64,000 nt of DNA from Cymbidium sinense (taxonomy: Eukaryota > Streptophyta > Magnoliopsida > Asparagales > Orchidaceae), in assembly GCA_021442155.1 (NCBI GenBank), contig CM038232.1, positions 60,295,436-60,359,435 on the forward strand. Reading direction: 5' to 3'. The position numbers and the translations under genes are program-made. The notes beneath the pieces were generated by a model. That model ran no database searches. It worked only from the letters and a program-made list of their open reading frames with translations, and was not told the origin of the DNA. This document shows positions 14,140 to 53,610 of this stretch, piece by piece; position 1 is the stretch's first letter, and each line of letters starts with the position of its first letter.

Positions 14140-15491
14140 GAAACCAAAAGAAATTTGTAGGAAGATTAAAATATTGACAAGTTGAAATAAATCCTACAAA
14201 CTATCACAAGAGTTTTTCATAAAAAAATGATTGAAGAAACTTTGACGTGAAATACATAGACTTTGATGTCTAAATACTAATCCACCAAAAATTATAAATT
14301 TAAAAGAATAAATAGATGGTGAAAATAGTATGACCAACTAAAAAGGGATTAAGATCAAGAAAATAATCTCAGGTAATTTGAGAAAGCTTGCTTAGTTAAA
14401 GATGTTGAAGCTTCCAAACTAAAGATTTGATCTTGCAATATTTGGAGAATACTTGAAAGGAAAATCTAGAAAATTTCCTTTTAGATTTGCTGGAGGGATT
14501 TTGAATTTGAATGAGAAATACTTCCATTAAGAGAATGAAGGCTATTTATAAGCAAGAAAGTCATTTTGAATTATTTTAAAAAAATATATTATTTTAACAT
14601 CATTTTATCATTTAATAATTTAATATTAAATAAAAATATAATTTTTATTAAATAAATATTAAATTCAAGCAGCCAGAATTTGACTATTCACATGGGAAAG
14701 TGAAAAATAATCAAATATGGCTCTTAATATATTCACAACATTTAGCATTCATTCATTATTAAAATCAGCAAATATTTGAAAATTCATAATAAATTCAATT
14801 TTAATCAAATGTGAGTCATGTAACCTATCAAATTAAAGTTAAAAATCCAAGGAATCCATTGGAGATGAAATCAAATATAAATTTCTTGATTATAAAATGA
14901 CTTTGGCTAAAATACAAAATTCCACATATTTTTGTTAATTTTGAAATATGACATTTAAATATTATGATATAATTTATATATAATCATGTATATGTTAGTT
15001 ATCATATAACCTTAAAATTAAATTAAAATATTTAATTATATTAAGTATATAAACTAATTACACTTAATAGTCATAATTTATTATCATTTATTATTTTGAT
15101 AATTCAAATGCTATGTATGAAACATATAATTGAATGTTAATTAGATATAGATTTATATAAATTAACCTTATTATCATTATTTAAAATAAATAAAAATAAT
15201 ATGTTAAGTTGTGAGCAAATTGAATCATGTCAATGAACTCATATGAATTTCTAAGATAGTTATAAATGCATATAACCTAAAATATTGTATCTTGGGCTTC
15301 ACATTATCCATTTTAATCTATAATTCATTCTTCTATTCTTTCAATTTTCTTAAACATATTGTGAGATGTATTGGATATGTAATTAGCAATTAATACATCT
15401 GAAACACATAAAATATATATTAGAACATCCAAGCATTCGTTTATTATCATCAAAACTGATCGGATTGAACATAAGGCCCATTAAGCTAACA
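14140..15491 (-). repeat. Left (3') LTR of copia 1, directly oriented part
   Basis: The segment corresponds collinearly to 21491-22806, with small indels. It ends at 15491 in AACA, which on the element strand is the LTR start TGTTAGCTTAATGGGCC; the right LTR starts TGTTGGCTTAATGAGCC. On the element strand this is the U3-containing end of the LTR. Confidence 0.9.
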
Positions 15492-20637: not shown

Positions 20638-22806
20638 TGAGTCACTATAGCAACTGAATTGGATATTAAAAAATTTTAAAAGTTAAATCTTAAATTTTAA
20701 GTTTTAGTAGAAAATTAATTTTGATTTTATAATGAAAAGATACAATTCTTAATGCAAAAAAAATAAAATATAGTAAAGTAAAGAGAGACAATAGGCAATA
20801 ATTTTACGTGGTTGGCCAAACCCCAAAACCCACCAACATCCACACCCTAGAATCCACTAAATGAAAATAACTTACAAATAGTACTCCCATAATGAGGTGA
20901 GTACAACCCCTACAACAATATGTACTCTCCTACAAGGGAGTACCCCCAATATAAATTTTACAAAAAAAAAAAATATAAAATAATAAATTTTGATAAAATA
21001 AATCTCTCAAAATATACCAAGCTATCAATTCAAAATGATCTCATAACTTATAAATGATCACTTACAACTTAAAAATTTGGCAAGATAAAATGCTCACTTA
21101 ATATTGATAAGAAATAATAAAATAAATATCTTAAAGTGATCTTACTAAGATGTTTATGTTATTACAATTTGTAGACTAATATAAAAATGATTTCAAAATA
21201 AGTTCATAATATTCTTTTGCATAATAAAATAAATTTTAACAGGGAATAATTTATTTTATTTTAACTAAAAAGATACTTTCAATTAATACAAATGATCACA
21301 AAATACTTAAATAAAATTAGTATATGAAAGATCTGAGTAGTCTAGTAAGCTTTTAATTAAAAAGAGAGATTTAACAAATATAAAAATAATTTTAGCACAA
21401 TAAATTAATTTAAATTGCTTAAAATATACTTATAAAATAGATCTAAGAATAAATGATCTTTCAAATAAGACTAATGAAGAAATATTTCAAGAAACCAAAA
21501 GAAATTTGTAGGAAGATAAAATTTTAGCAAGTTGAAATAAATCCTACAAACTATCACAAGAGTTTCACAAAAAATGATTGAAGAAACTTTGATGTGAAAA
21601 ATAAACTTTGTCCAAAGACTAATCCACCAAAAGTATAAATTGGAAAGAATAAATAGATGGTGAAAATAGTATGAACAACTAAAAAAGGATTAAGATCAAG
21701 AAAACAAACTCAAGTTTGAGAAAGCTTGCTTAGTTGAAGATGTTGAAGCTTCCAAACCAAGGATTTGATCTTGCAATATTTGGAGAACACTTGGAAGGAA
21801 AATCTAGAAATTTTCTCTAGATTTGCTAAAGGATTTTGAATTTGAATGAATGCTTTCATGAAGAGAATGAGGCTATTTATAGCAAGAAGGTCATTTTGAA
21901 TTATTTAAAAATATATATTATTCTAACATCATTTTATCATTTAATAATTTAATATTCAATAAAAATATAATTTATATTAAATAAATATTAAATTCAAGCA
22001 GCCAAAATTCGGCTATTCACATGGAAAGTAAAAAAATAATCAAATATGGCTCTTAATATATTCAAAGCATGTAGCATGCATTCATTATTAAAATTGGATA
22101 ATACTTGAAAACTCATAATAAATTCAATTTTAATCAAACGTGGGTCATGTGACCTATCAAATTAAAGGAAAAAAAATCCAAGGAATCCATTGGAGATGAA
22201 ATCGATATAAATTCCTTGATTATAAAATGACTTTGGCTAAAATACAAAATTCCATATTTTTGTTAATTTTGAAATATGACATTTAAATATTATGATATAA
22301 TTTATATATAATCATACATATGTTAGTTATCATATAACCTTAAAATTAAATTAAAATATTTAATTATATTAAGTATAAATAATTATACTTAATCATAATT
22401 TATTATCATTTATTATTTTGACAATTCAAAATGTATGAAACATATAATTGAATGTTAAGATAGAGATTTATATAAATTAACCTTATTATCATTATTTAAA
22501 ATAAATATAAATAATATATTAAGCTATGAGCAAATTGATTCATGCCAATGAATTCATATGAATTTCTAAGATAGTTATAAATGCATATAACCTAAAATAT
22601 TATATCTTGATCTTCACATTATCCATTTTGATCTATCTTTCATTCTTCTATTGTTGCAATTTCCTCAAACATATTGTGAGATGTATTAGATATGTAATTA
22701 GCAATTAATATATCTGAAATACATAAAACATATATTAGAACATCCAAGCATTTATTTGTTATCATCAAAATTGATCGAATTGAACATGAGGCTCATTAAG
22801 CCAACA
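20638..22806 (-). repeat. Right (5') LTR of copia 1
   Basis: About 2.17 kb, bounded on the element strand by TGTTGGC at 22806 and GACTCA at 20638, next to the primer site. It serves as the promoter LTR. It contains a run of A/T-rich text and, near its inner end, the CCCCTACAACAATATGTACT patch (about 20908-20927) also seen in copia 2 (near 42400). Compared with this copy, the left LTR is partly inverted. Confidence 0.9.
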
Positions 22807-24730
22807 TTTTGATGTGCAATGGTCAAGTTAGGAAGAAAGTGCGGGGGCTCACATCCTCCTGAACAAAGGACCACTGGGGTGATCGGTTGCTTGCATAATA
22901 AATCAAACCCAAACTAAGGCGATTAATTGAGCGAATGCCACTGTAGACTCACATCGACTCAAGGACAGTCAGAATTAATTTAATTTGGGATGGACCCTAT
23001 CGGTGTGCGATGGATCTACTAAGAAGGGGCTAATATCAGTCTAGACATGTCTTAAGTTTATAAATCCAAAGGGATAGTTTCCGGCAATGGGGTAAGGCTA
23101 ACCAACCAGAAGGGTGCCTTTCAGTGTGCAATGGTCAAGTTAGGAAGAAAGTGCAAGGACTCACATCTTCCTACACAAGGAACCACTGGGGTGATCAATT
23201 GCTTGCACAATAAATTGAACCTAACCTAAAGCTATCTATCGGTGTGCAACAGTCATGCTGGAAAGAATGCATAATAGACTTATATCTTTCAAAGTAAAGA
23301 AGACCACCAGGGTGACTTGTTGGTGGCACAATAAGTTGAACCTGACCTAAGGGTGGCTACTGAGAGAGTGTAAACTCGGAGACTTATCTCAACTCAAAAG
23401 TAGTCAGGAGATTCCTATAAGGAGTTTTGCTGACACTGCCCTAAAGTTAGGATGCCTGCTTGGGAAAGGGGCCACTAGGGGCTTGAATTCCTAATCAACA
23501 AGCGAAGAAATATTTTGTTTGTTTGTTATCATGGACCCTATTGGTGTGTGAGAGACCACACAGAGAAGGAGCTTATATCAGCCTAGTCCTATCTCAAACT
23601 TACTGCACCAAGGGAGAATCTGCATATTCGCAAGACAAATAATCCAACCACAGGGGTGGCTACTAGGAAAGGCGGGCTGTCCAATCCAAAAGTAACCCGG
23701 GTAGTGTCTAGATGGGGTCGCTAATGACGTGATCCAAATAGAGTGCCCACAGGGGAGGTGCTGCTTGGGGCGTTATCTAAAATCCTGTAAAAGAAAGTTT
23801 GTAGGTATACGGTGGCAAACTCAAGGAGAAAGCATAGGGACACACATCTTCCAAGAGTAGTGTATCCACCAGGTGGGTCACCATCAACATGGAAATAACT
23901 TACCAACCTAAGGTGCCCATCAATTTTCAACAATCAGCCTAGAGAAAAGGCATGTAGACTTATGTCTCTCTAAAGCAGAACTAATCATTGGGATGGTCTG
24001 TCTTTGGCTCAATAGGGGTTATTCGACCTAGGGAGACTACTAAACAATGAGTCATGTGTAAGAAGTAAACCCTAGCTTGAAGTAGTCAGGAGGAAAGGAG
24101 CCACTGGGGATGTATCTTAAGCCTCAAATATACTTGACCTAGTCAGTGCATGATGGCTAGTCCAAAAATAAAGCATGTAGGCTTACATCCTCTTAAACAA
24201 AGTTAACATAGGGTAGCTTATCAACTATGTAGTAAGGCCTAACAAACTAATAAGGTGCTCATTGGTTTGTAATGGTCAAGTTAGAAAGAAAGCACGGGGA
24301 CTCACATCTACCAAACAACAGACCATTGGGGTGACACACTAATAAGGTAGCATATCAGTTTGACCTAGAGCAGCTAATGAGTGAGTGCCACAAGGGCTTC
24401 CTCCCATATTAAATAGCTCAAGACAAAAAATATGTGTTTATTTGTGTTGTGAAAAATGGAATAGGATGACACTTTGGCTCTCTTATACCTACCTTAAACA
24501 TGTAGAAGAATGGATGAAATGGCGCCGCAGGGGCAATTATGACTCCACCAAGAAAGGATGCTGCTTGGGTTATCTTACACCTAACCTAGTTATGATAGTG
24601 TGCCTCTTGGCTTCTCTTAAACCTAACTAAGTAGCATTGGAGGATCGTTTGTAGTTTGTTTATGTTGTGGAGGTATAGGATGCCGCTCGGGTTCTCTTAC
24701 ACTTACCCTAAACACGTTGTGGCGTATTCG
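22807..24730 (-). repeat. Degenerate tandem repeats, probable 3' untranslated region of the Tat element
   Basis: A motif of about 100 bp, beginning GGTGTGCAATGGTCAAG, then AAGAAAGTGC, CTCACATC, ACCACTGGGGTGA and ending ATAAATTGAACCTAACC, recurs at about 22812, 23130, 23238, 23809, 23915, 24145 and 24259. A second motif (GGACCCTATTGGTGTG... GGGCTAATATCAG) occurs near 22993 and 23531. The copies lie between the Tat integrase and the copia insertion. Tandem repeats in the 3' untranslated region are known from Tat/Ogre elements, where they can seed satellites. No frame is coding; a plus-strand open stretch at 24385-24630 is accidental. Confidence 0.7.
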
Positions 24731-26099: not shown

Positions 26100-26560
26100 A
26101 TTTTGGACCCTTATTAGAATGGACTCATCTTCCGGACATACCAACTCTTTAGCAAGCTTGGCTAATGCATCTACTACTGCATTCTCTCCTTGAGGAATCT
26201 TGTAGATGGTAACTTCTGTGATTTGGGCCAACAACTCCATAGTCTACTTGTGGTAATAATGGAGCTTATGCTTTAGAACTTTGTAGAACCCAACGATTTG
26301 GTTAATGACGAGCAAAGAATCCCTGAAGATGTTGATACTCCAAATGCATAGTGTAATGACTAACTCCAGACTAGCAATCAAAGCCTCATATTCAGCCTCA
26401 TTATTAGTGCATGGGTTGGACAGATGATTTGAGAATCTCATTACATCGTGGTCTGGAGTTAGGAGAAATATTCCTACCCCTACCTTTCATGGAAGAGTAA
26501 ATCATGGTTCTTCTCCTTTTGGGAAGGAAGCCGCAATATCAAAATACATCTCCTAGTGGT
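26100..26560 (-). pseudogene. Second (archaeal-like) RNase H of the Tat element
   Basis: The open piece 26441-26244 reads NHLSNPCTNNEAEYEALIAS, then INIFRDSLLVINQIVG, with continuation VTIYKIPQGENAVVDALAKL near 26217-26157. NNEAEYEAL supplies the conserved glutamate and FRDS the aspartate of the extra RNase H carried by the Tat lineage, located between the first RNase H and integrase. A TNNEAEYEALI tract here is diagnostic. Broken by several stops. Confidence 0.88.
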
Positions 26561-26679: not shown

Positions 26680-26995
26680 TGTGATATGTCAAACATGAAA
26701 ATCATGGACCAATGTGCCAATCATCTAGATAGCATCAGCTGTGTCATGAGATATTATAGTGGATTGATCCTGGAGATTAGATTCACTTTATGAGATAGCA
26801 TGTAGTGTCGTAGCTTTTGGGATGCAAAGATTAAAGCTAGGAGGTGCTTTTTATTAGGTGTGTAGTTTTCCTCAATAGGGATTAGACGATGACTGAGGTA
26901 ATAGAGAGCATTTTATTTACCTTCACTGTTGGCTTGAGCCAATAAAGCACTAAGCGAGTCATCTAAAGTAGTAGTGTGTGAGGATCAAGCTTGCG
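26680..26995 (-). pseudogene. First (reverse-transcriptase-linked) RNase H of the Tat element
   Basis: The minus strand reads DDSLSALLAQANSEGK, NALYYLSHRLIPIEENYTPN, KHLLALIFASQKLRHYM and NLISRINPL before decaying. This is the RNase H that follows reverse transcriptase in Ty3/gypsy polyproteins. The frame carries isolated stops. It directly continues the reverse transcriptase on its right. Confidence 0.85.
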
Positions 26996-27999: not shown

Positions 28000-28635
28000 A
28001 TCTCTTCTTCGAACTCTGGCAGTGCCTCTTTGACTTCAAGCTCATTTGGGTCATCTAAACTTTCTAAACATACCTCCTTATAAGAGTTAGCATGATTTGA
28101 GAAGAACTATCAGACCTGAAATGAGTGGTCATGATTAGGCAATGGTTGTTGTCATCGACTGGATCCACTATGTTGAATCCTAGTCCCAGTCTTGATTAAG
28201 AATATTTGCTTTGGTTCTCCTATAACATTTCAAAGTAATCTGACCTATTTTTAGACCAAGTATGTGGGATTAATCAATTCTTTGCTAAGTTAAGAACACA
28301 AGGCAAATATCAATCAAAAGGAAATTGTATTAAATCTTTATATGAATCATCCTTAAGTTCATTAGCCAGAACCTTCTTGATGAAGACCAAAAATTAAACT
28401 TCTTTAAGAGATTCTTAAAGATCTTCCTGACTACCTCCCTCTTGAATGAATATGGTTTATTCAATTTGTCAACAAGAGTAGGTAAATGATAGCTAACTAA
28501 CAGTGGATATGAATACTATTGTTGATGGTGCTAATGAGGATCTTGTGAGGAGGTGGAGGCCATTGTGGAAGCGAGGTGGCGATAAATGGTAAGGAGGTGG
28601 TGTGGAGGTTAGAGGAGACTTGAGCAGGCTATCGA
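28000..28635 (-). other. Tat gag-pol junction, protease not recognised
   Basis: This interval should hold the aspartic protease of the Tat element. I could not identify a D-S/T-G box or other protease motif in any minus-strand frame. It may be deleted or too decayed. Confidence 0.4.
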
Positions 28636-28639
28636 ACCC

Positions 28640-30292
28640 CGCTACTTCCCTTTATCGGTGTGGCCACTAGCTTCTCAAATTTCTTCTGACGGGCTTGTTG
28701 ATCTTGGAAAGGTAACAGTTTGATCTCCCCTTGTAGACTATCTGCCTTATTGATTAATTTCTCAAATGTCTTAATAGTAAACCCTTTAAGCATAAAGGCG
28801 ACCGGCCATGAATATTCTTGAGTAGAATTTCAATGGCATGATATTCAGATAGCTATGATTCACATTTTATACTTAAATTGTGCCATCTAAGAATGTAATC
28901 AATAAGGGACACACCGGGGTGTTGTTGAGCTATAATAAGATCGCCCACATTTACCCTTTGCTGAGCTCTAGTAAATCTTTTAATAAAGAGCTGCTCCAAC
29001 TCAACAAATATCTTCACTGAACCATTGGGTAGTTCAGCATACTAATCAAATGTGATGCATATCAAGCTACTGATGAAGAGGTAAAATAAGAGTGCATCAC
29101 TATCACTAGCATTACAATGCAGCCGGGGGTTCCCACTGCCATCAAAGATTTTGAAGCAAGGAGGTACAAAACCCTTAGGATATTGAACAACATCAAATTC
29201 CTCCAAGTATGGTCTACCCTTTGGAATAGATGAGCCACCTCAGGTTTGTGCCAATGCATCCTTGACCTACTGCTCCACCAACTATTTGATATCTTTCTCT
29301 TGCATGGAGGTGTTGTCCACCACCTTCCTATGCAAGCTACCACTATCGATATCCTGGAGAAGTGCTCTTGGACTGATCTAGGACATGCACTAACTCAGGA
29401 TGGTCTATCTTTATTGGTATATGTTGTGGACTAAGGCCTGATTTTGAAGTGCATGGAGGGCTGCTAACAAGTCTTCCATCCTCTTCTCCATCTAGTTAAT
29501 CTGATCATCCTTTTATTTAAGTTACTCATGGATGTGTTGGATTGAATGGATGACATCATCTTTATCAATCACAACACCTTCCTGACTATGTTGATCTCTC
29601 TGAAGGGAGCTCCTAGTGTCGATCATGTGGACTCCGGTTGAATCCTCAAGAAGGTCATCCTCATAGGGATCAAATGCTACCCGCTCATCCTCAAAATCTA
29701 TGCAATCGTTGCCTAAGAGTTCCCTCTTCTTAGCAAAGTAAGCGAGTACGGTCTCATCTAAGGAATGATCTAATTATGCTGGCACAAATACCGGGGATGG
29801 TGGATTGTGCTCCTTGGAAAATACATAACACTTCTTATACTTTCAGTCTTGCTAGAAGAGTCATGCTAGATATGCTCATGACGCTATGGGTGGTGTCCCT
29901 AGGAGATCCATTATCATGGGAACTATAAAACTATCATCTTCCCCTCATTCGCCACTACTCGATGGTGGTGGCGGTGGTGCGACCATGCTGCTGGTCACCA
30001 CTCCACACACCATAGTGGTAGAGGGTTGAGCAAAACTCAATCTCACCTCAATATGGGGGGAATGGAGCGGGATCCTTGGCCATGAAATCACCAAATGGGT
30101 TGGTCTTTCCCTGGATGGTGGCTTCTGGATCTTGGCGAGAGTGGTGGACGCTAGGAGATGTACGGGTGATGGTGGATGATGAGGGAGGCGGTGAAACACC
30201 AAGCCCTCAGAAATCTCACTTGTAATCCTATCGAATGATCGGCCCGGGGAAGATGAAAATCCATTAGAGGATCCGGCTAGTGTACCTATCAT
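28640..30292 (-). pseudogene. gag: Tat gag, broken
   Basis: The first open piece starts at 30292 (MIGTLAGSSNGFSSSPGRSF) and runs 115 residues to 29945, rich in proline and serine; its start follows the leader, so this is the likely gag start. The capsid core lies at about 29200-28700 with GFVPPCFKIFDGSGNPRLHC, LPNGSVKIFVELEQLFIKRF, QQHPGVSLIDYI and a KIDPATFEKLINKADSL-like segment near 28790-28740. Related Tat gags have the same FDG...SW-L...F-QF...L-R pattern. Frames switch repeatedly; a long minus-strand open stretch at 29343-29062 is in the wrong frame for half of it. Confidence 0.75.
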
Positions 30293-30299
30293 TCCCTCA

Positions 30300-30900
30300 C
30301 ACTGAATATGTGCGCTCTCTCGTGGATTTGACCCCTAACACTCCTAGGGATCAATGATCACAAAATCAAATAAGGTTCTAGACTTTAAGCATCTGTATGC
30401 TCTACCAACCTAGAGTAGTACAGTCCTAAGCCTGGCATAGGGCCTCTTGTGTTCCCTATCCAGATCTCATGGTATCTTGGTGGAGAGAAGCTAATCCTTG
30501 ATCTTCCTCTCCATGATGGAGGGGTTGGGACTTGCGGTCAGCGAGAGACTTCTGGGAGAACCCTCCTCATCTGTGATGCGACAAGTTCTCAGTTGCTCGC
30601 TCACTTGGCTCTTGTAATTGTGTGTGGTATGAGTGAACAAGGTAGAGAATTACCTCGTAAGTAGAGGAGACTATCTTAGAAGCTATGATAGCCTTCCACT
30701 TCGAGGTAACCAAAGAGGAGGTAATAGCTCTTGTTGGAGAAATGGTGGGGAGACTTGATGACAGTCAAACTATCTCGAGTAGTGGGAACCCACCTTCCTC
30801 TTCAATGGAGGTACTTTCAGAATGGAGGGCATGATGGATGGGCTTACGACCACCTCATCCCACTACTTGGCGGTGGTCGCCCCTCATAAGTAACTCGTGC
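30300..30900 (-). other. Leader of the Tat element
   Basis: The stretch between the primer site and the gag start is non-coding on the element strand. It is richer in G and C than the surrounding DNA. Plus-strand open stretches at 30449-30664 and 30838-31056 have no family resemblance and are taken as accidental. Confidence 0.6.
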
Positions 30901-30929: not shown

Positions 30930-30931
30930 GG

Positions 30932-31120
30932 TGGGTGGAGTCAGTCTCGGGGAGGCTTGCTTGATCCAAGGCCAAGTCCATCCCAAAGGGGAAAGTAATG
31001 AACGAAGCCATGTGTGTAATACAGAAGGCACCTCACTGTATGTCTACATGCATTGAAATGTAACATGAGTTGGGTTTCTGCTTTAATATTCATCCCAAGA
31101 GAGCCATAATAATTTGGAGT
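30932..31120 (-). repeat. Inner end of the Tat 5' LTR
   Basis: On the element strand the LTR would end ...CCACCCA at 30932, two bases before the primer site. Its far edge was not located and no second LTR copy exists in the window to define it. Confidence 0.5.
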
Positions 31121-32665
31121 TCTAAACCCACACTCTATAATTCAAACATGTTAAGTGGGCTTCAGTGGAGAGATTTTGATGTGATGAGGAGAGTCTTTAC
31201 CATTTGATTTTGATTTAAAACCCATACTCAACCAATTTAGGTGGGGTTCTTTGAGAGAGATTTTTTTTTTTGAGGTATTTGTATTTTTTGTGCATCTTGT
31301 TTGAAAATATTGATGATTTGAAAGAACCTCTACTTAGCAAATTTGGGTATGCTAAGAAGAGGTTGTGATGTAAATTTTTGTATTTGCTTATGATGTGCGA
31401 AATGTTGATTTAAAAATGGGGCTTCTTACTTAACAAATTTTATATGTCAAGTAGAAGCCACATGTGTTTGATTTATGTTTAAAAATGGGACTTTCACTTA
31501 ACAAATTTGGTATGTTAAATGAAAGCCAAATGTGATTGATGTATGTTTCGCTTTTCTTTGAAAATGGGACTCACTTAACAAATTTGGTAATATAAGTGAA
31601 AGTATAAGTGTGGTGTGATTTATGCTTTTCTTTTCTTTTGAAAATGGGACTCTCACTTAATAAATTCGGTATGTTAAATGAAAGTCCAAATGTAATTGAT
31701 TTATGTTTTGAGAATGGGACTCCCACTTAATAAATTTGATATGTTAAGTGGAGGTCCAAATGTAATTGATTTATGTTTTGAAAATTGGTCTCCCACTTAA
31801 CAAATTTGATATGTTAAGTGGAGGTCCAAATGTGAAATGATTTGTGTTTTGCTTTTGGGACTCCCACTTAACAAATTTTATGTGTTAAGTGGAGGTCAAT
31901 TGTGACATGGAAATGAGGCCCTCTCTTAACAAATTTGGTGTGTTAAGTGGGGAGCCAAATATGTCATGAAAATGAGATTCTCTCCTAACAAATTTGATAT
32001 ATTAAGTGAAATCAAATATGATTTATGAAAGTAAGACTCTTACTTAGCAAGTTTGACATGTTAAGTGAAAGTCAAATGTATCACGTAAATGAGATTCTCA
32101 CTTAACAATTTTAATATGTTAAGTGGGAATCAAATGTATATGAAAGTGAGATTCTCACTTAACAACTTTGATATGTTAAGTGTAATCAAATATGACATGA
32201 AAATAAGATCCTCACTTAACAATTTGATATGTCAAGTTAGAATAAAATGTAACATGAAAATAAGATTCTCACTTAACAACCTTGACATGTTTAGTCAGAA
32301 TCAAATGCATATGAAAATGAGATCTCACTTAACAAGTTTGACATGTTAAGTGGGAATTAAATGTTTTTGATGTGCTCTCTTTCTTTTTGGAAAGAAAGTG
32401 GAATTCTTTGTTTGAAAAATGTGGCATGTCAAATAAGATTCCAAAATAGAGGTGAAATTTATTTAACAAATGTTAAGTATGTTAAATAGATTTCAATGAT
32501 ATGTTTTGATGCCATGTATGTGTTTTCATGATTTTGAAAAAGAGAGAAACTTTCACTCTAGTATATGTGAAATATGTTGATGGAGTTTCAATTTTATGTT
32601 ATGATTTGAAAATAGGATGTTCATTCAACAAATTTGAGTATGTTGAATGAAGGTGGCTATTTTCA
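31120..32665. repeat. Array of about 20 hairpin repeats (TTAACA...TGTTAA units)
   Basis: Each unit contains an inverted repeat, typically CACTTAACA, a loop of about 9 nt, and TGTTAAGTG. Units are centred near 31345, 31440, 31510, 31588, 31667, 31737, 31805, 31878, 31937, 31995, 32055, 32112, 32168, 32225, 32284, 32340, 32410, 32480 and 32630, with two weaker ones near 31145 and 31215. Spacing is 68-80 bp in the first half and a regular 56-58 bp between 32040 and 32340. Stems extend to 14-16 bp and the two arms change together: ACTTAGCA/TGCTAAG, ACTTAACA/TGTTAAGT, ATTTAACA/TGTTAAAT, ATTCAACA/TGTTGAAT. A plus-strand open stretch at 32089-32349 reads through five units only because 57 is divisible by three. 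It lies where the 5' LTR of the Tat element would extend. Confidence 0.85.
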
Positions 32666-32669
32666 AAAA

Positions 32670-35580
32670 AGGTGCTTTTGGAAAGTACCATTTTGTAAAA
32701 GAGTTTGTTTTATTAAATCTATGATGAACTTTGCCTCACTAAGCTAGTGGTAAGTAGATTATAAATTTTTATTACCTCTCTCTTCATTGATAAATTTTGA
32801 TTTTTACCTATTGGGGAGCCCAATAGGGGTTCCAAGACCTATACAGAGTGAGATCCTAAAACCTAAAAGATGTTGGCTAACTTTGCTTAAGAATGAAATA
32901 AGATAAGTTACAATGGAAGGAAAGATAGTCTCGAACTCACATAAAATGCAAGTCCACTATCGATGCTTGGAGACAACAATCATCTACTAGAGATGGAGAG
33001 AGGAGCCTTCCCTAGTGAAGTGGCCAGAAAAATCTGTGGTGTTTATTATTGGATTTATTCGTGTGTGTATATGTGAGGGAACACCACGCAGATTTGAGGA
33101 TGTACTTATTAAGGTGATCGAGTATGACATTAAGGAATAGTGTACTATCTCAAAATATAGAAATCACTACCATATGATAGACCTAATAACCTAATAAGCA
33201 CTCGTAAGGCATGATGGGTCTTCGAATATACCATAGATTTTTTTTCTCGTACTCTACTCATAAGGCAAGCCTCTATAGTTAATTACATCTTAATACTCTC
33301 AATTAAAGTAGGTTATTTTTTCTCCAAAGAATTCAAAGATAGGACTATCAATAAATTGGTTGTATTTTAGAAAATCAAGTGGGGTGGATCAAAAGGAGAG
33401 AGTTGTTATCGACATTAAAGGAGATGAGTAGGGAGTGCTCATGATGCTAGAAAACCTAGTGTGCACTGCAATCTATCCTATGGTTGGGATTTATATATTT
33501 GAAATTGAGGAGATCTATTTATTTGAGTTAAAGTTTTATTGGAAATCATGGACTTATAATTTCACAATCCAAGATTATGAAAATTCCTAAGAGATGAGGA
33601 TTTATGCTTGGAGCACCAAAGGAAAATAGCAACCTCAGATCCTAAATTTAGGAGCTTTGGCGAGGGCTAAAGTGACCTAAATCTAAGGTGAAAGTGGGTA
33701 TATGGTTTACCTCTCCATAAGAGAGAGCAAACCACCCGACTACTGGACTTATAACTGTCGGGAGTGGCAGCCAGCTAACTCCTCCTATGCTTTAAATCTA
33801 TGTAGGCAAGTCATAAGCTTTTGTAAGATGGCTAGGTTGTTATTATTTAGAAAAGAAACTAAGTCCTTAAACTCCTAAGAGACTAGACCATGAGGGGTAT
33901 GAATAATGACTTAAACCTAATGTAAATTTTTATCAAATTTCATTTTATTTGGGACTCTTTATTTTAACATGGGCTATGGGATTTTGTATGCCTAAATGCA
34001 TGAGAAGTTGATTATGGGCCAAATCAAAAGGGAAAGAGGTGTTCTTCCATCATAGGCTCTTAAAGATTAAGCCCATTCTATCTATAAAAGATGGAAGCTC
34101 TCACTTAATAAGAGTGAAACAAGATGGCAATGCATGATATTAAACATACAACGTCCAACTAAGGGGTTGCTAAATATTTCATTATCTTGATTTAATACCT
34201 AGGCTTTTATGTGAGATTATGAGTTATTTTAAAAGTTTAGTTATGACTTGTTAATGGGATAGAAAAATTTTTTTCCTAAGAGCCTAATCGCACCCAGGCC
34301 ATACAACAATCACCAATCATAAACAAACTATGAAAAGGCATGCTTTTTCTAATGCACAAGCTAAACAAAATATCAAATAATTTTATAAAGATCTCATAAA
34401 AGAATAAAAGGCCGATGCGGTCAGGTGCCACCGTATGACTTGAAAGAAATATGGGTAGCTGAGCTCTACCCTTATACAACCTAGATTACAAGAAAATAAT
34501 TACAGTTAAGAATAATGAATGTTATGGTGGTCTTCATTCATCATTCCTTCTTCTTCATTTCTTCATTTTGGCTTGATTTGGATATGCTTACTCCGAAGGT
34601 ATCACATGGTACATAAGACTTAGTCTTATAACCAATGCTCATCCTAATCCCCATAACATTCATCCTAATCCTAATGCAAAATTACATTAAAAGAGTGAAA
34701 GTAAATCTAGCTACACCTATAAAATAAATGTTAGCTAAACACACCATACAACCCAAGATTATATAAAAAAAATTTGGGCTTAGCACCTCATACATGGGTA
34801 ATCAAGCTCACTTGTCCTAACTTGAGTTATACTTAGAGACTAAGCAACCTACACAACTAAAGCATTTATATTTTTATTATGACATCCCCTTAAGCACAAC
34901 CCCCTACAGAAAATATATTAGGCTAATCATGGCCTAACATTCAGACTACGCATATACACTCTAACATCCAGTCTACTATAATATCACAAAATAAGTATAC
35001 ATCAAACCATACACCGCCTTAACATAAAGCTAGAAATGGTGACTTAATCTAATGTGTGTGAATTAAGGCTTGTGTGGTATGTCCTAACTAGGCTTTAAAG
35101 TTGTAATTTGCTAAGTGTGAGAGATTTAATTTATAAAGGGTTGATTTCTCTTTAAGTGGTTTAATTAAAAACTAAGTGTTATAAAGAGAAGAAAGAGAGA
35201 TAAGCTCTCTTTTATCCCTACCTTAAGTCACTTCTAAAGCAAGTTAATTAATTAATTTTCTTTAATGAATGGCTTATTATATATTTTAATTATTCCTAAG
35301 TTTAGATTCACTCTAAATGACCTTATTCAATGAGAAAGACATCTTAAAATTAACTAGAATGGATTACTATCATGTGATAAATGTTTATTCATTTCTTTCC
35401 ATCATGTATATCATGCATATGAATAAATCCTAAGCATACCTATACGTGCAATTTATATTTTTAGCATACTTGAATGATGAATGCAAAGGAGTGTATTTGG
35501 AATTTAAATATTTCATTTGATTGAATTATGAATGCATGCCTTTTAATAGAAAAGAGGGATTTTTCATCCATTAGTTAGAT
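32670..35580. other. Non-coding DNA, probably LTR or flank, nothing recognised
   Basis: No coding remnant is supported. The composition is less AT-rich than the left end of the window. The text around 33700-33790 (ACTGTCGGGAGTGGCAGCCAG) is LTR-like in feel but has no second copy here. A minus-strand open stretch at 34276-34479 has no resemblance to known proteins. Confidence 0.35.
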
Positions 35581-35582
35581 AC

Positions 35583-35960
35583 ACATTCACATGTATAAAT
35601 TTTTTAAGTGATTATGTCTCCATTATTTTTTGCACCAGGGGCGTAAGGTACAAGACCTACTTAGGGCAACTTAAAGCCTCATAGCCCCGGGGTGTCTAGA
35701 GTAATATACCACTTTTTTTATATACATGTAAATGTATAAGCAACTATAAGGATAGGAAAACCCATGCAAAAGTTATGTTTAATTTATTTGACTTATGATT
35801 CTTATTCATTGGCCACATCACACATACATATATGTTTTTAAGTGAGTACGGTGCTTATTTTCTACGCATGGCGTGGTATAAGACCTACTTAGGGACTACT
35901 TAAAGCCTCCGTGTGTACTAATATACCTCTTTTCTCAGATACATATGAATGTATAAAAAA
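35583..35960 (+). repeat. Imperfect direct duplication, about 235 bp apart
   Basis: About 35600-35745 and 35835-35957 share AAGTGA at the start, GTATAAGACCTACTTAGGG or GTACAAGACCTACTTAGGG, ACTTAAAGCCTC, TAATATACC and a final ATACAT-GTAAATGTATAA. The copies are a local tandem duplication with divergence. No protein is encoded. Confidence 0.75.
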
Positions 35961-37600
35961 GAACCATAATAAGAAGAAGAAGTCATGCATGAAGTCATAT
36001 TTGCTAGATTATATGATTTACATATGTGATATGAAATTCTTCCTAAGTCTTAACATGGAAATGCATAGGAATAGATTTAGACAAATGTTGTGCTCTTTTC
36101 AAATGAATTATACATTTGTAATTCCTATGTGAATCCATGTAAAGTAAAGAAAGAGAGCTTCATATTGCATATTTTATATTATCAACACATGCAAACTTAT
36201 AGCTATTTTTAATTAACATCACTCCATTATTGAGAGCTTTTGAAAATAACATGATTTAATAGTGATAATAATACACTTATTTTATTTAAATCAATGCATG
36301 CAATTAAACATAAAAGAAACTATTTCCTTTAGTTAATTTTAAAAAAAATGAATGCATGATTACATATGGCAAGCAACATTTAACATAATTGGAACATAAG
36401 CACATAATCTCATTCATTCCAATTAAATCGTGAGGACAATCGTACTAAATAAAGCCATTTAAAATAACCGAAGTTCTTTAATGTTATTTGATCTTTATGT
36501 TTGATTTGAGTTAAAGAAAGTGAAAGAGGTTTTCTTGTCCTAATCTCATTCTCCATGTGTGAGTTAATTTTGGTTCAAGGAAGAAGTAATTAGGTTGATT
36601 TTATGATTTAATTAGGTTAGGGTATGAATTAAGTGAATTAATTAATCATTACCTACATCACCTTAGGTTAATTAACTAATCAATAATGAGCCAATATGAT
36701 ATGTAACCACATGGAAAGTAAATTTGCAATGCTATTAAGAAATGAAAGGGGCCTAATGCAATTGGCTCATGATTAATAGTTAATTAAGCTTAAGAGATCT
36801 CACTTAACTATTTTTATGGTTTTCTCACACATGTGAGCTAATCATAATTTCATTATCTCCCCCTTTGGGTTATAGAACACCCAAAAAACTACCCAAGATT
36901 AAATTAGAGAAAAAGATTCAATTGAATTAATTAAGTTCATTAATTAACTAATTAAACCTTAATTAATATTAACTAACCAAAATGAGATGGCCTTACAAAA
37001 AGAGACAAAGAAGGGAGTCTAAGTCTCAACCCTTAAATCCTTTCAATTAGTTGATTAAAGTTCATGTATGATTTGGATTTTGATTAATCTTGTTGATTAA
37101 CTAATTAAGGAGTATTAATTAATTAATTATTTAAGAGGGATTAGAGAAGATTTAAGGAAAAGATTGGAAGAGGGAGTTCCAATCCATTTCCCTATACTTC
37201 ATCATCATTATAGAAGCTAATAAGCTCAATTTATTGATTAATTTATTGTTCATTTGCTTAATTATTACTAACTACATTAAGAAGGTGATTAAGGATTAAA
37301 ATTAGTTTCTCTAATTAAGCAATCAATAAAATCTCAAAAAAATAGTGGAGGTAGAGGTCTTCCCTCTAAACATGCACAGAAAGTTTGAGATTAATTAGAT
37401 GGTTAATTAGGGAGTAATTACTCTAATTATATTTCTAATTAAACTTTAATTAAGCCAAATCCACTGCTCAAAATCAATAAATAATAATTCCCTTAGATTA
37501 TACTCTAAAATATCTTTAAAATGAGCCTAAGTTTGTATTCTTTTTGATTTTTTTAGAATTAGCTATGAATTTAGGAAGTTTTAGAATTAAAAACTAATTA
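35960..37600. other. AT-rich non-coding DNA
   Basis: Nothing coding is recognised. TTAATTAA-type words and A/T runs are abundant from 36570 to 37500. Probably U3 or spacer sequence of an old LTR element. Confidence 0.4.
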
Positions 37601-38480
37601 ATTAGCCCTAATTAAAGCCTTAATCCCATCGGGCCACGTGGCGGCTGATGCGGCACGATTTCCACATGGCATGATAGATGTCGCTATTTAAGTTGTCACA
37701 TCTGAGTGCTGACTCAGATGGCGGCGCACGCAGTAACTCGTGGACCATCTAATCCAAGATCGGACAACCACGATTAAACTCATAGTTTTGAGGGATTAAA
37801 CAGGGGCTCTAAGTGTGATTTGATTAGGATTGTCCATCTCGATCACGAAATGGACAGTCCATGATCTATCTCCTCTCGAGCATTGAGCAGTAGCTACTGT
37901 CCATCGATCATCACGATTTGAGCTCACCCAAGCTCGGATAGAGATAAAAATGATCCCACACCTTCGGGGAAGCACAACAAACAAATCTAATGGTGGAAAT
38001 CACATTACATTGAAATTTCTTTTATAAAAAACCAAGCTATTTTCATTCAAGGATTGATTTTAGTATCATACCTCACTAGAGCATATGACTGCAGTTCCAA
38101 CGATTAAGAAAGCTTCATTTGGTAGAAACAAAGCTATGTTGAGCCGCACGAGCTTTGATTTGGTATAGTTTGCTCGGAAGACCAATCCACTAGGCGTAGG
38201 TGCTCGGGCTTGATCGAACTCTACCCTTCGGCCGTCGAGAAGCTTGGGAAATGATTCATTATTGCTTTATTGGCTCTAAGGAAGGTGTGTGCAAAGTTAA
38301 TTGCATTTTGGTGGATATTTGAGCAAATGGGAATCAAAGGTGGCCTCCCCTATTTCAATTTTGTTTAAAATTGAGAATGGAGATTTTGGGGAGCCTTGGA
38401 AATGGCTCAGGATTCTACTTGGATCTAGGGTTGAAAGTGTGAGTGTGAGTGAGAATGAGGGGGTACACCCCCTCATTCCT
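37600..38480 (+). promoter_or_regulatory. GC-rich promoter-like patch with G-box and inverted repeat
   Basis: Against an AT-rich background this patch has a 10-bp palindromic G-box GCCACGTGGC at 37633-37642, a TATTTAA stretch at 37685, and CATCTGAGT/ACTCAGATG arms around a 4-base spacer at 37699-37720 that includes TGACTCA. Plant bZIP factors bind G-boxes and TGACTCA sites, so a promoter is plausible. The likely owner is a retrotransposon LTR, since no host coding exon follows: plus-strand open stretches at 38301-38483 and 38579-38767 are short and unlike known proteins. Direction is uncertain. Confidence 0.35.
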
Positions 38481-38879
38481 TAGGTCGGATGGCCATTGAT
38501 GATTTGGATTTTCCTTGATCAATTGGCCACATCAGAGGCTAATGGAGGTCTTTGGGTGCATGATGTGGCTCAATTTAGTTGGGTGAGGGTGTGGAGGTGG
38601 CTACCAAGTTAGGAAGTGCTTTTCCTTGGTGGTTTGGAAAGCTCCAATGGGGATGGAGAGGTAATTTCACCTCCCCATGGATTATGGCCAACCCAAAAAT
38701 CTTTGGGTCTGGTCAACCATGGTCCAAGGTGCCTAAGTTGACCTATGAAAGGGTGTCAAGTGGCTAGGGGGAGATAATGATTCAATGGGCATGTGTCTTA
38801 TCTCATGGGATGCCCTAAACTTAAGGGTAAAATTGTCATTTACCTATGGGTTTGATTTGGGCAGATTTGGGATGGGTCA

Positions 38880-40135
38880 AAAGTTGGTTAGCCCAAATTT
38901 TAAGTGGTTTGGAGTTTGTTTGGTTTGATTTGGCTTGATTTGACCTATTTAGGTTAAATTGGGTTTAGTTGTGTTGAGTTGACCAATTGGTCAAATTGGA
39001 TCAAACCAAGGGTTGGGTCAAGTTCACATGACCAATTGGAGTGTATTGGTGTCATTGATTTGATTCAATTTGCTTTGGATTTGGTTATGGCTCATTTGGA
39101 TTCATATAGGTCAAATGGATCAATTTGACCAAATTGGGTTAGGTTAGGTGTTGAGTCAAGTTCAATTGGCTAATTGAAAATGATTGTAGGCTTTGGTTTG
39201 ATTTAATTTGGAGTTAATTTGAGTTTTGGCTAATTTGATCCTTTAGGTCAAGTTGACCAATTGGTCAACTTGGGCTCAATTATGGCTTTGGTCAAATTCA
39301 ATAAGTGATTTGCAGTGAACTTGAGTCATTGGTTACAATCAATTTGAATCAAATCATAATTTGACCCATTATGGCTTTTTATGCCAATTTGGGTCAACTT
39401 GGATCAAATGTCCAATTAGGCTTGGTTTGGCTGAAGTTAAGGTTTGGTCATGTTTCATTGATCATGAGTGGATTTGAATCAATGGTTTCAATCAATTTGG
39501 TATATGGTGGATTTTGGCTAGTTTGGGTTTTATTTGGGTTAAGTGTTGACTTGGTCAATGCTAGGTTGACTTGGTTTGACCCAATTTAAGACAATTGACT
39601 AACCTAGGATGATTGTTGATCATGTTGTGAGGTTTGGATGGAATTAGTTCAATCCAATTTGGGTTGGAATATTTAGCTCAAAAAGGTCCTTTAGGTCACT
39701 TTGGGTCAAGTAAGCCTAAATGGTTTAATTGGCTTGATCATGGCTTGATTCAAGTTTAGTTGAACTCACACATGAGCCTAGGATTAAAATATAAATCCAA
39801 TTGCAAGTGATTTGGATCCATATGGATTTTGGCACATATGACAATTTCAAGTCAAAAGGGCTAACTTGGGTTTGATTTGGGTTAGCTTGGATATGGTTTG
39901 ATAATGGTGGTTTATGCTTATATTTAGGTCAATGATTGTAGGAATGATTGAATCATGAAAAAGTTCATGAGTTTTGAATTGGTTTGGGTATCATTTAGCC
40001 GAGTTCAAGAATTTGGCTAAAAGGGTGTGTTAAATTTGATTTGATTTGGATTTCAATCATTTGGAGTTTGGAATTTGATTTGAGATTGAATTTGATGTTT
40101 GGTTTGAAAGAAGGAAGCAAAGGTCGGTTCAATTA
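38880..40135. repeat. Field of degenerate TTGGGTCAA / GACCAATTGGTC repeats
   Basis: Across about 1.2 kb the words GGTCAA, TTGGGT, GATTTGG and their complements recur every 15-40 bp without a fixed period. The most ordered part is a perfect 24-bp palindrome at 39249-39272 centred on AATT. Similar half-copies occur at 38985-39000 and 39028-39036. The field looks like amplified low-complexity sequence of an LTR and has no coding content. Confidence 0.7.
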
Positions 40136-53379: not shown

Positions 53380-53610
53380 GGTCAGTGTATCGCGTGCCCA
53401 TGACCCGATAGCCTGAGCAATGAGTAGCACGACACTATATCAAATTCAATCCACTCATACGAGTTAATTGACTGATCCGCATGAGAATCGAATCGAAAAA
53501 ATTTTGAGCCAAAATTTTGGCTCAAAATTTGGCTCATTTGCTTCGAGTCGATCTCAATTCGAGCCAAAATACTAGTCAATTTTTGAGCGATCAATGATCT
53601 TCGCTAATTT
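53380..53610. repeat. Right subterminal region of the hAT element with a 32-bp palindrome
   Basis: GAGCC and GGCTC words recur, including an exact 32-bp palindrome at 53499-53530 (centre AAAATTTT flanked by GAGCC and GGCTC). Further GAGCC copies lie near 53560. They are candidate transposase-binding sites. Confidence 0.85.

What the first reader, a model, noticed from the sequence alone, without database searches (positions are those of the whole stretch)
31120..32665. Array of about 20 hairpin repeats whose two arms co-vary
Each repeat unit carries an inverted repeat with a 9-bp core stem and often 14-16 paired bases. The core itself changes between units but stays paired: ACTTAGCA with TGCTAAG (31325-31364), ACTTAACA with TGTTAAGT (most units), ATTTAACA with TGTTAAAT (about 32465-32500), ATTCAACA with TGTTGAAT (about 32620-32645). 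The distal stem also changes in step: GGCTTC with GAAGCC (31420-31459), TTTCAC with ATGAAAG (about 31490), CTCCCAC with GTGGAGG (about 31730 and 31795), GATTCTCAC with GTGGGAATC (about 32092). Simple tandem duplication with random mutation would break stems. Paired change suggests selection on a folded RNA or DNA structure, or repair that copies one arm onto the other. The array lies where the 5' LTR of the Tat element extends, so it may be transcribed.
Basis: seen in the sequence. Interest (0 to 1): 0.78.

Follow-up and report, generated by a model that had tools for sequence, protein, structure and literature searches.

The report
Hairpin array in plant retrotransposon leader
A row of about 20 small DNA hairpins sits just after the replication-primer site of an old plant jumping gene, recurs widely in the genome, and its two arms have changed in step more often than chance allows, which suggests a folded structure that the element needed, though copying of one arm onto the other is not excluded.

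Summary
In detail: 19 alignable hairpin units lie at 31120-32667, and arm changes are paired more often than shuffled, cross-unit or tree-based controls allow; 18 of 27 paired-change cells come from five edge units. The host genome (3.5 Gb) holds about 50,000 core matches. In 395 units from 22 arrays, compensated double changes exceed the null about 4.5-fold on internal tree branches (15 vs 3.3, 0 of 500 simulations), in the pairing register only. Terminal branches show no clear excess (12 vs 8.2), though a tree built without stems gives some (26 vs 14.8). So pairing was mostly kept while lineages replicated and decays after insertion. The location claim is wrong: the array is not in the LTR. 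A sister element has LTRs equivalent to window 33035-40100; a primer-binding site lies at 33009-33026; the array sits in the transcribed leader between it and gag, also in a copy without pol. No G-U strand bias was found, so selection on RNA is likely but unproven. Best reading: a cis-acting leader hairpin array of a Tat-lineage Ty3/gypsy element, a new variant of retrotransposon tandem palindromes.

The parts
31120..32667 (-). Hairpin array in the 5' leader (element reads on the minus strand): 19 alignable units plus about 3 decayed ones, spacing 51-96 nt
31325..31364 (-). Unit u1, gag-side edge: 15-nt arms, 14 of 15 paired, 6 pairs changed on both sides
31416..31463 (-). Unit u2 with GGCTTCT/AGAAGCC distal stem and one bulge
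31484..31902 (-). Units u3-u8, spacing 70-82 nt (u4 weakly paired)
31912..32363 (-). Units u9-u16, spacing 56-59 nt
32453..32495 (-). Unit u18: 16-nt arms, core ATTTAACA/TGTTAAAT, 14 of the 15 counted pairs Watson-Crick and one G-U
32605..32667 (-). Unit u20, PBS-side edge: 63-nt quasi-palindrome with an 11-nt outer arm; the other 18 aligned units have outer runs of at most 6
33009..33026 (-). Primer-binding site, decayed here (15 of 18 to the motif that is 18 of 18 in L136); the tRNA-Arg label is recalled
33035..40100 (-). 5' LTR, about 7 kb; edges inferred from the LTR pair of the element around L132; right edge uncertain (alignments end at 40085 and 40107)
28391..30400 (-). gag region (by position and by eye; the pieces tried gave no Pfam match to a gag family); window homology starts at 28390-28400 in 11 of 20 sister loci
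26757..26912 (-). RT-linked RNase H fragment (PF17917, E 4.5e-9)
26244..26486 (-). Additional RNase H fragment (PF13456 RVT_3, E 9.2e-6); a second RNase H is the mark of the Tat clade

Best explanation
The array is a cis-acting part of a Tat-lineage Ty3/gypsy retrotransposon. It lies in the genomic RNA leader, about 0.35 kb after the primer-binding site and before gag. Each unit folds into a hairpin with an 8-bp conserved core, a loop of about 9 nt and a variable outer stem. While lineages replicated, stem changes that broke pairing tended to be compensated; once a copy is inserted its hairpins decay. The most likely role is in the RNA: a repeated packaging, dimerisation or Gag-binding region, which copies lacking pol must also keep to be mobilised. 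Shown here: the array, its place, its recurrence in the genome, register-specific covariation on internal branches, mostly uncompensated change on terminal branches. Inferred: selection as the cause, RNA as the level, packaging/dimerisation as the role.
For: Internal-branch compensated changes 15 vs null 3.3 +- 1.9 (0 of 500); 16 vs 3.9 +- 2.0 on a tree built without stems (0 of 500). In the full tree both-sides changes on internal branches number 23 in the true register and 5-11 when slid by 1-3; terminal ones 33 against 22-34 slid. Core-arm divergence stays at 0.063-0.091 while spacers go from 0.046 to 0.211 and loops from 0.083 to 0.214 (187 overlapping array pairs). Internal:terminal changes 91:234 in core arms, 386:708 in loop plus flanks, p=0.016. 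Leader position: LTR pair without hairpin hits; PBS-like site at 13 or more of 18 in 15 of 22 arrays against 12% of random stretches. 2 of 20 sister loci match the window's RT/RNase H region while all 20 hold units; in the element around L132 an LTR abuts the gag piece, so pol is absent there.
Against: No G-U preference in either strand: one-sided breaks on internal multi-locus branches 38 G-U vs 40 A-C, terminal 97 vs 111; RNA selection should tolerate G-U. Core versus loop alone is not significant (57:112, p=0.21), and the left flank has the same internal:terminal ratio (116:277) as the right core arm. Disjoint sister pairs give no excess of double changes over column shuffling (47 vs 43.0 +- 5.3). 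On the stem-less tree terminal branches also show an excess (26 vs 14.8, 5 of 500; 55 in register against 33-44 slid). Units were found by core similarity, which lowers core divergence. No RNA data.
Confidence: 0.42

Rival explanations
1. Template switching copies one arm onto the other. If it is reverse transcriptase that switches at the hairpins, it happens only during retrotransposition, so paired changes appear on internal branches without any function of the hairpin.
For: Template switching is reported to create and maintain hairpin stems (PMC8794818: abstract, part 1 of 2 of Results and Discussion read). u20 carries an 11-nt outer right arm that is the exact reverse complement of its left flank; the other 18 units have runs of at most 6, and a run of 11 or more came up once in 20,000 attempted draws (about 3% of them skipped; noticed first, tested after). 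No wobble bias. Three to six paired changes in each of u1, u17, u18, u20. Terminal excess on the stem-less tree.
Against: No register-specific excess on terminal branches of the full tree, so switching in resident genomic DNA is not clearly visible. No clearly inverted loop among 19 window units (18 read forward, u18 is undecided at 5:5). Does not explain slow core arms between lineages.
Confidence: 0.25
2. The palindromes act as DNA: repeated dyad-symmetric binding sites (a transcriptional control array just downstream of the LTR), like the palindromic boxes of Sirevirus LTRs.
For: Core arms are the least diverse part of u3-u16 (0.12 against loop 0.245, p=0.09, and spacer 0.405) and stay slow between arrays; palindromic arrays are reported in retrotransposon control regions (PMC10760457 and PMC2829016, passages read).
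Against: A binding site predicts fixed half-sites, not compensated change of outer stems. The array is downstream of the PBS, not upstream of a promoter in U3.
Confidence: 0.18
3. An ordinary minisatellite of hairpin monomers; the paired differences are a few old subfamily differences copied many times, with ascertainment helping the edge units.
For: 18 of 27 paired cells in five units, some recognised partly by pairing; inside subclades no significant own-arm advantage; disjoint sister pairs show no excess; tandem arrays are usual in Tat elements.
Against: Branch-based counts treat each old change once and still exceed all 500 simulations on internal branches, in register.
Confidence: 0.15

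Closest known systems
Palindromic repeated motifs in Sirevirus (Ty1/copia) LTRs (PMC2829016, passages; Bousios 2016 not held, known through passages of PMC10760457)
   Same: Clusters of repeated palindromes in a non-coding region of a plant LTR retrotransposon that can fold into hairpins
   Different: Those lie in the LTR upstream of the TATA box (some also before the env gene), nearly all share a CGG-CCG core, and belong to copia elements; these are AT-rich, lie in the leader after the PBS, and belong to a gypsy Tat element
Tandem-repeat arrays of Tat/Ogre/Retand elements (PMC7004042 and PMC3305785, passages; PMC11963269, abstract and passages)
   Same: Family-specific short tandem arrays inside Tat-lineage elements, many copies per genome
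   Different: Described between pol and the 3' LTR; the word hairpin does not occur in the three main texts (palindrom occurs twice in PMC11963269); this array is at the 5' end
Retroviral and Ty1 leader packaging/dimerisation hairpins (recalled; Ty1 seen only in a search listing)
   Same: Hairpins in the leader between primer-binding site and gag
   Different: A few distinct hairpins there (recalled), mostly 10-30 tandem relatives here; no binding or dimer data
Template-switch-made hairpins (PMC8794818)
   Same: Multiple compensatory changes and a new outer arm (u20)
   Different: Excess here lies mainly on internal branches

Membership tests
Tat clade of Ty3/gypsy LTR retrotransposons | Second RNase H domain (aRH) besides the RT-linked one | tested here: met
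   PF17917 at 26757-26912 and PF13456 at 26244-26486, minus strand; criterion from passages of PMC6317226
Tat clade of Ty3/gypsy LTR retrotransposons | Order RH, aRH, INT (Ogre/Retand type) | tested here: inconclusive
   RH before aRH confirmed; integrase at about 25.1-25.6 kb read by eye, no Pfam match for the pieces tried
Tat clade of Ty3/gypsy LTR retrotransposons | tRNA PBS next to the 5' LTR | tested here: met
   18 of 18 in L136, 13 or more in 15 of 22 arrays; motif and tRNA-Arg identity recalled, not tested against tRNAs
Sirevirus palindromic LTR motifs | Motif inside the LTR | tested here: not met
   0 core hits at up to 6 mismatches in L149, L150, L151 and in the LTR parts of L132; one element tested
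Sirevirus palindromic LTR motifs | CGG-CCG core | tested here: not met
   Core is ACTTAACA/TGTTAAGT
Tat 3'-region tandem arrays | Array between pol and 3' LTR | tested here: not met
   Array between PBS and gag
Leader packaging/dimerisation element | Located between PBS and gag in genomic RNA | tested here: met
   (position only; no transcript seen)
Leader packaging/dimerisation element | Self-complementary apical loop | tested here: inconclusive
   CAAATTTG in 172, AAATTT only in 49, neither in 174 of 395 units
Leader packaging/dimerisation element | Binds Gag or drives dimer/packaging | not testable with these tools
   needs RNA work
Described Rfam RNA family | Match at gathering score | tested here: not met
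   0 matches in the window

The most novel reading that the evidence does not exclude
A plant retrotransposon whose leader carries an amplified array of about 10-30 related RNA hairpins under selection for pairing, serving as a multivalent packaging or dimerisation signal shared by autonomous copies and by copies without pol.
Probability: 0.27. Interest if true: 0.8.

Novelty: new variant of a known kind. Interest (0 to 1): 0.55.

Why it matters
To my knowledge few cis-acting RNA signals of plant retrotransposons are known (recalled). A tandem array offers thousands of natural variants of one hairpin, with terminal branches as a near-neutral control, so whether selection or template switching keeps stems paired becomes directly testable. 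It also warns that tandem repeats in such elements need not be neutral filler.

Tried and rejected
Array as part of the LTR: rejected by the LTR pair of one element. My early guess of a PBS near 30930-30950 was wrong; the site is at 33009-33026, and two of my notes placed the LTR edge wrongly at first. Coding array: the 86-codon frame at 32089-32349 does not hold across units spaced 56-59 and 70 nt. Pairing of each right arm with the next unit's left arm: weaker (mean 7.8) than own pairing (9.6). RNA selection seen through G-U: 18 G-U vs 22 A-C in the window, p=0.64; in 372 units the bias differs from site to site. miRNA-like stability (110-nt MFE under -40): 2 of 298 windows on +, 0 of 298 on -, fewer than in the left flank (13 and 9 of 298). 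A loose viral-contig pattern gave many hits that I took for chance and did not study; stricter exact patterns gave 0 in viral and 0 in prokaryote contigs, collections that should hold no plant DNA. A protein search with an RT-side piece found nothing. The 20 sister loci are a biased sample: all come from the first 100 listed places, on two contigs, each with at least one exact core match. From 853 raw candidates, 372 passed score 15 with a neighbour; 395 were used for trees after adding 23 of lower score. The covariance model was built from the same 19 units it then found; outside the array its best match had E 0.076.

Full report
What is there. At 31120-32667 lies an array of hairpin units spaced 51-96 nt apart. 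I could align 19 units; one at about 32545-32595 and two at about 31125-31165 and 31217-31252 look decayed. The unit is an outer stem of about 7 pairs, an 8-bp core ACTTAACA/TGTTAAGT and a loop of 8-11 nt, 9 in most. The core does not recur elsewhere in the window (13 hits, all inside; 0 expected in shuffles).

Covariation in the window. With a fixed 15-pair structure, 82.7% of 284 cells pair, against 77.7% when right letters are shuffled and at most 43% when slid; 27 cells are changed on both sides against 11.9. Own arms of 20 units beat all 100,000 reassignments (194 against a maximum of 179). Against simulations on a tree of the units, 27 stands against 10.9 +- 3.5 or 13.2 +- 4.2. The signal is uneven: u1, u2, u17, u18 and u20 hold 18 of the 27 cells; u3-u16 alone give 9 against 5.6-6.2 (p 0.13-0.19). 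By one arm alone u17 and u18 would not stand out from the rest of the window and u1 only ties. Without u17 the result stands (24 against 9.2-10.5); without u1 and u18 it weakens (16 against 7.7, p=0.016, or 9.9, p=0.069). Unpaired wobbles are balanced: 18 G-U and 22 A-C (A-C on the plus strand is G-U in the minus-strand RNA).

Where it is. RNase H fragments of two kinds on the minus strand place the remnant in the Tat clade (criterion read in passages of PMC6317226). Twenty 10-kb sister loci all carry units, 3 to 30 hits each, in one orientation apart from one or two opposite-strand hits in 11 of 20. Comparing them with the window and fetching the flanks of one showed a direct repeat of about 85% identity on both sides of that element: left copy L151 from 3823 through L149 into L132 to about 2635, right copy L132 from 6560 into L150 to about 2431, equivalent to window 33035 to about 40100. 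The right copy lacks about 1.4 kb that the left copy and the window have. Neither copy has a hairpin hit. Just inside the right copy is a primer-binding site, perfect in L136 (18 of 18) and at 13 or more of 18 in 15 of 22 arrays, against 12% of random stretches (the tRNA-Arg label is recalled). In the window it is at 33009-33026. So, read in the sense direction: LTR, PBS, about 340 nt, array, about 0.7 kb, gag. The LTR pair was checked in one element only.

How common. The 27-nt core at up to 3 mismatches matches 25,206 times forward and 25,216 times reverse in the genome, against 0 for the reversed pattern (the tool calls such counts lower bounds). With a median of 10 such matches per sampled array this suggests about 5,000 arrays (inference from a biased sample). 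Homology to the window starts at 28390-28400 in 11 of 20 loci, and 2 of 20 match the RT/RNase H region; in the element around L132 an LTR directly abuts the gag piece. So at least some copies, and probably many, kept leader and array without pol.

Selection or copying. Among 372 units, own Watson-Crick pairing is 4198 of 5580 cells against 3984 +- 18 when right arms are exchanged inside each array (maximum 4042 of 2000); own exceeds cross in 21 of 22 arrays. On a tree of 395 units I counted changes per branch. Internal branches: 15 compensated changes against 3.3 +- 1.9 (0 of 500); terminal: 12 against 8.2 +- 2.9 (67 of 500). The tree without stems gives 16 against 3.9 (0 of 500) and 26 against 14.8 (5 of 500). 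In the full tree sliding the register removes the internal excess (23 changed on both sides in register, 5-11 out of register) and leaves the terminal number (33 against 22-34); slid registers hold 12-14 pairs instead of 15. In the stem-less tree the figures are 24 against 8-18 internal and 55 against 33-44 terminal, so there some terminal signal is in register too; misplacement of units on that tree could cause it (inference). As spacers diverge from 0.046 to 0.211, core arms stay at 0.063-0.091 while loops rise from 0.083 to 0.214 (pairs overlap, so this is descriptive). Internal-to-terminal counts are 91:234 for core arms and 386:708 for loop plus flanks (p=0.016), but core against loop alone is p=0.21 and the left flank (116:277) is no different from the right core arm (52:125). 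Disjoint sister pairs show 47 double changes against 43.0 +- 5.3; only 1 of 10 in recent pairs and 19 of 37 in older pairs link two Watson-Crick pairs. Wobble shows no strand.

Reading. Pairing was mostly maintained while lineages replicated and is lost in resident copies. This fits selection on a leader structure; arm copying by reverse transcriptase is the main rival, with u20 (11-nt outer arm matching its own left flank) as its best single case. RNA as the level is inferred from the position. Tandem arrays are known in Tat elements, but at the other end, and palindromic arrays are known in Sirevirus LTRs; a hairpin array in a Tat leader did not turn up in the listings of my ten paper searches, which cover open-licence papers only.

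Noticed in passing
window 14140-15491 and 21491-22806: Direct repeats of about 1.35 kb, 90.3% identical, flanking minus-strand ORFs: probably the LTRs of another retrotransposon abutting the Tat remnant at 22807
   Followed up: partly
window 22809-24334: Short degenerate repeats (76-85% alike) at the 3' end of the Tat remnant, the usual place for Tat tandem repeats
   Followed up: no
window 28390-28400: Common start of homology in 11 of 20 sister loci, a sign of a shared lineage lacking what lies beyond
   Followed up: partly
window 53499-53530: Perfect 14-bp palindrome with a 4-nt loop
   Followed up: no
window 38453-38478: Perfect 11-bp hairpin with a run of G and C inside the inferred LTR
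   Followed up: no
L142 1415-3182 and 3284-5056: Two arrays in tandem about 1.85 kb apart (88.8% alike) in a locus with 100 N; possible assembly artefact or duplication
   Followed up: no
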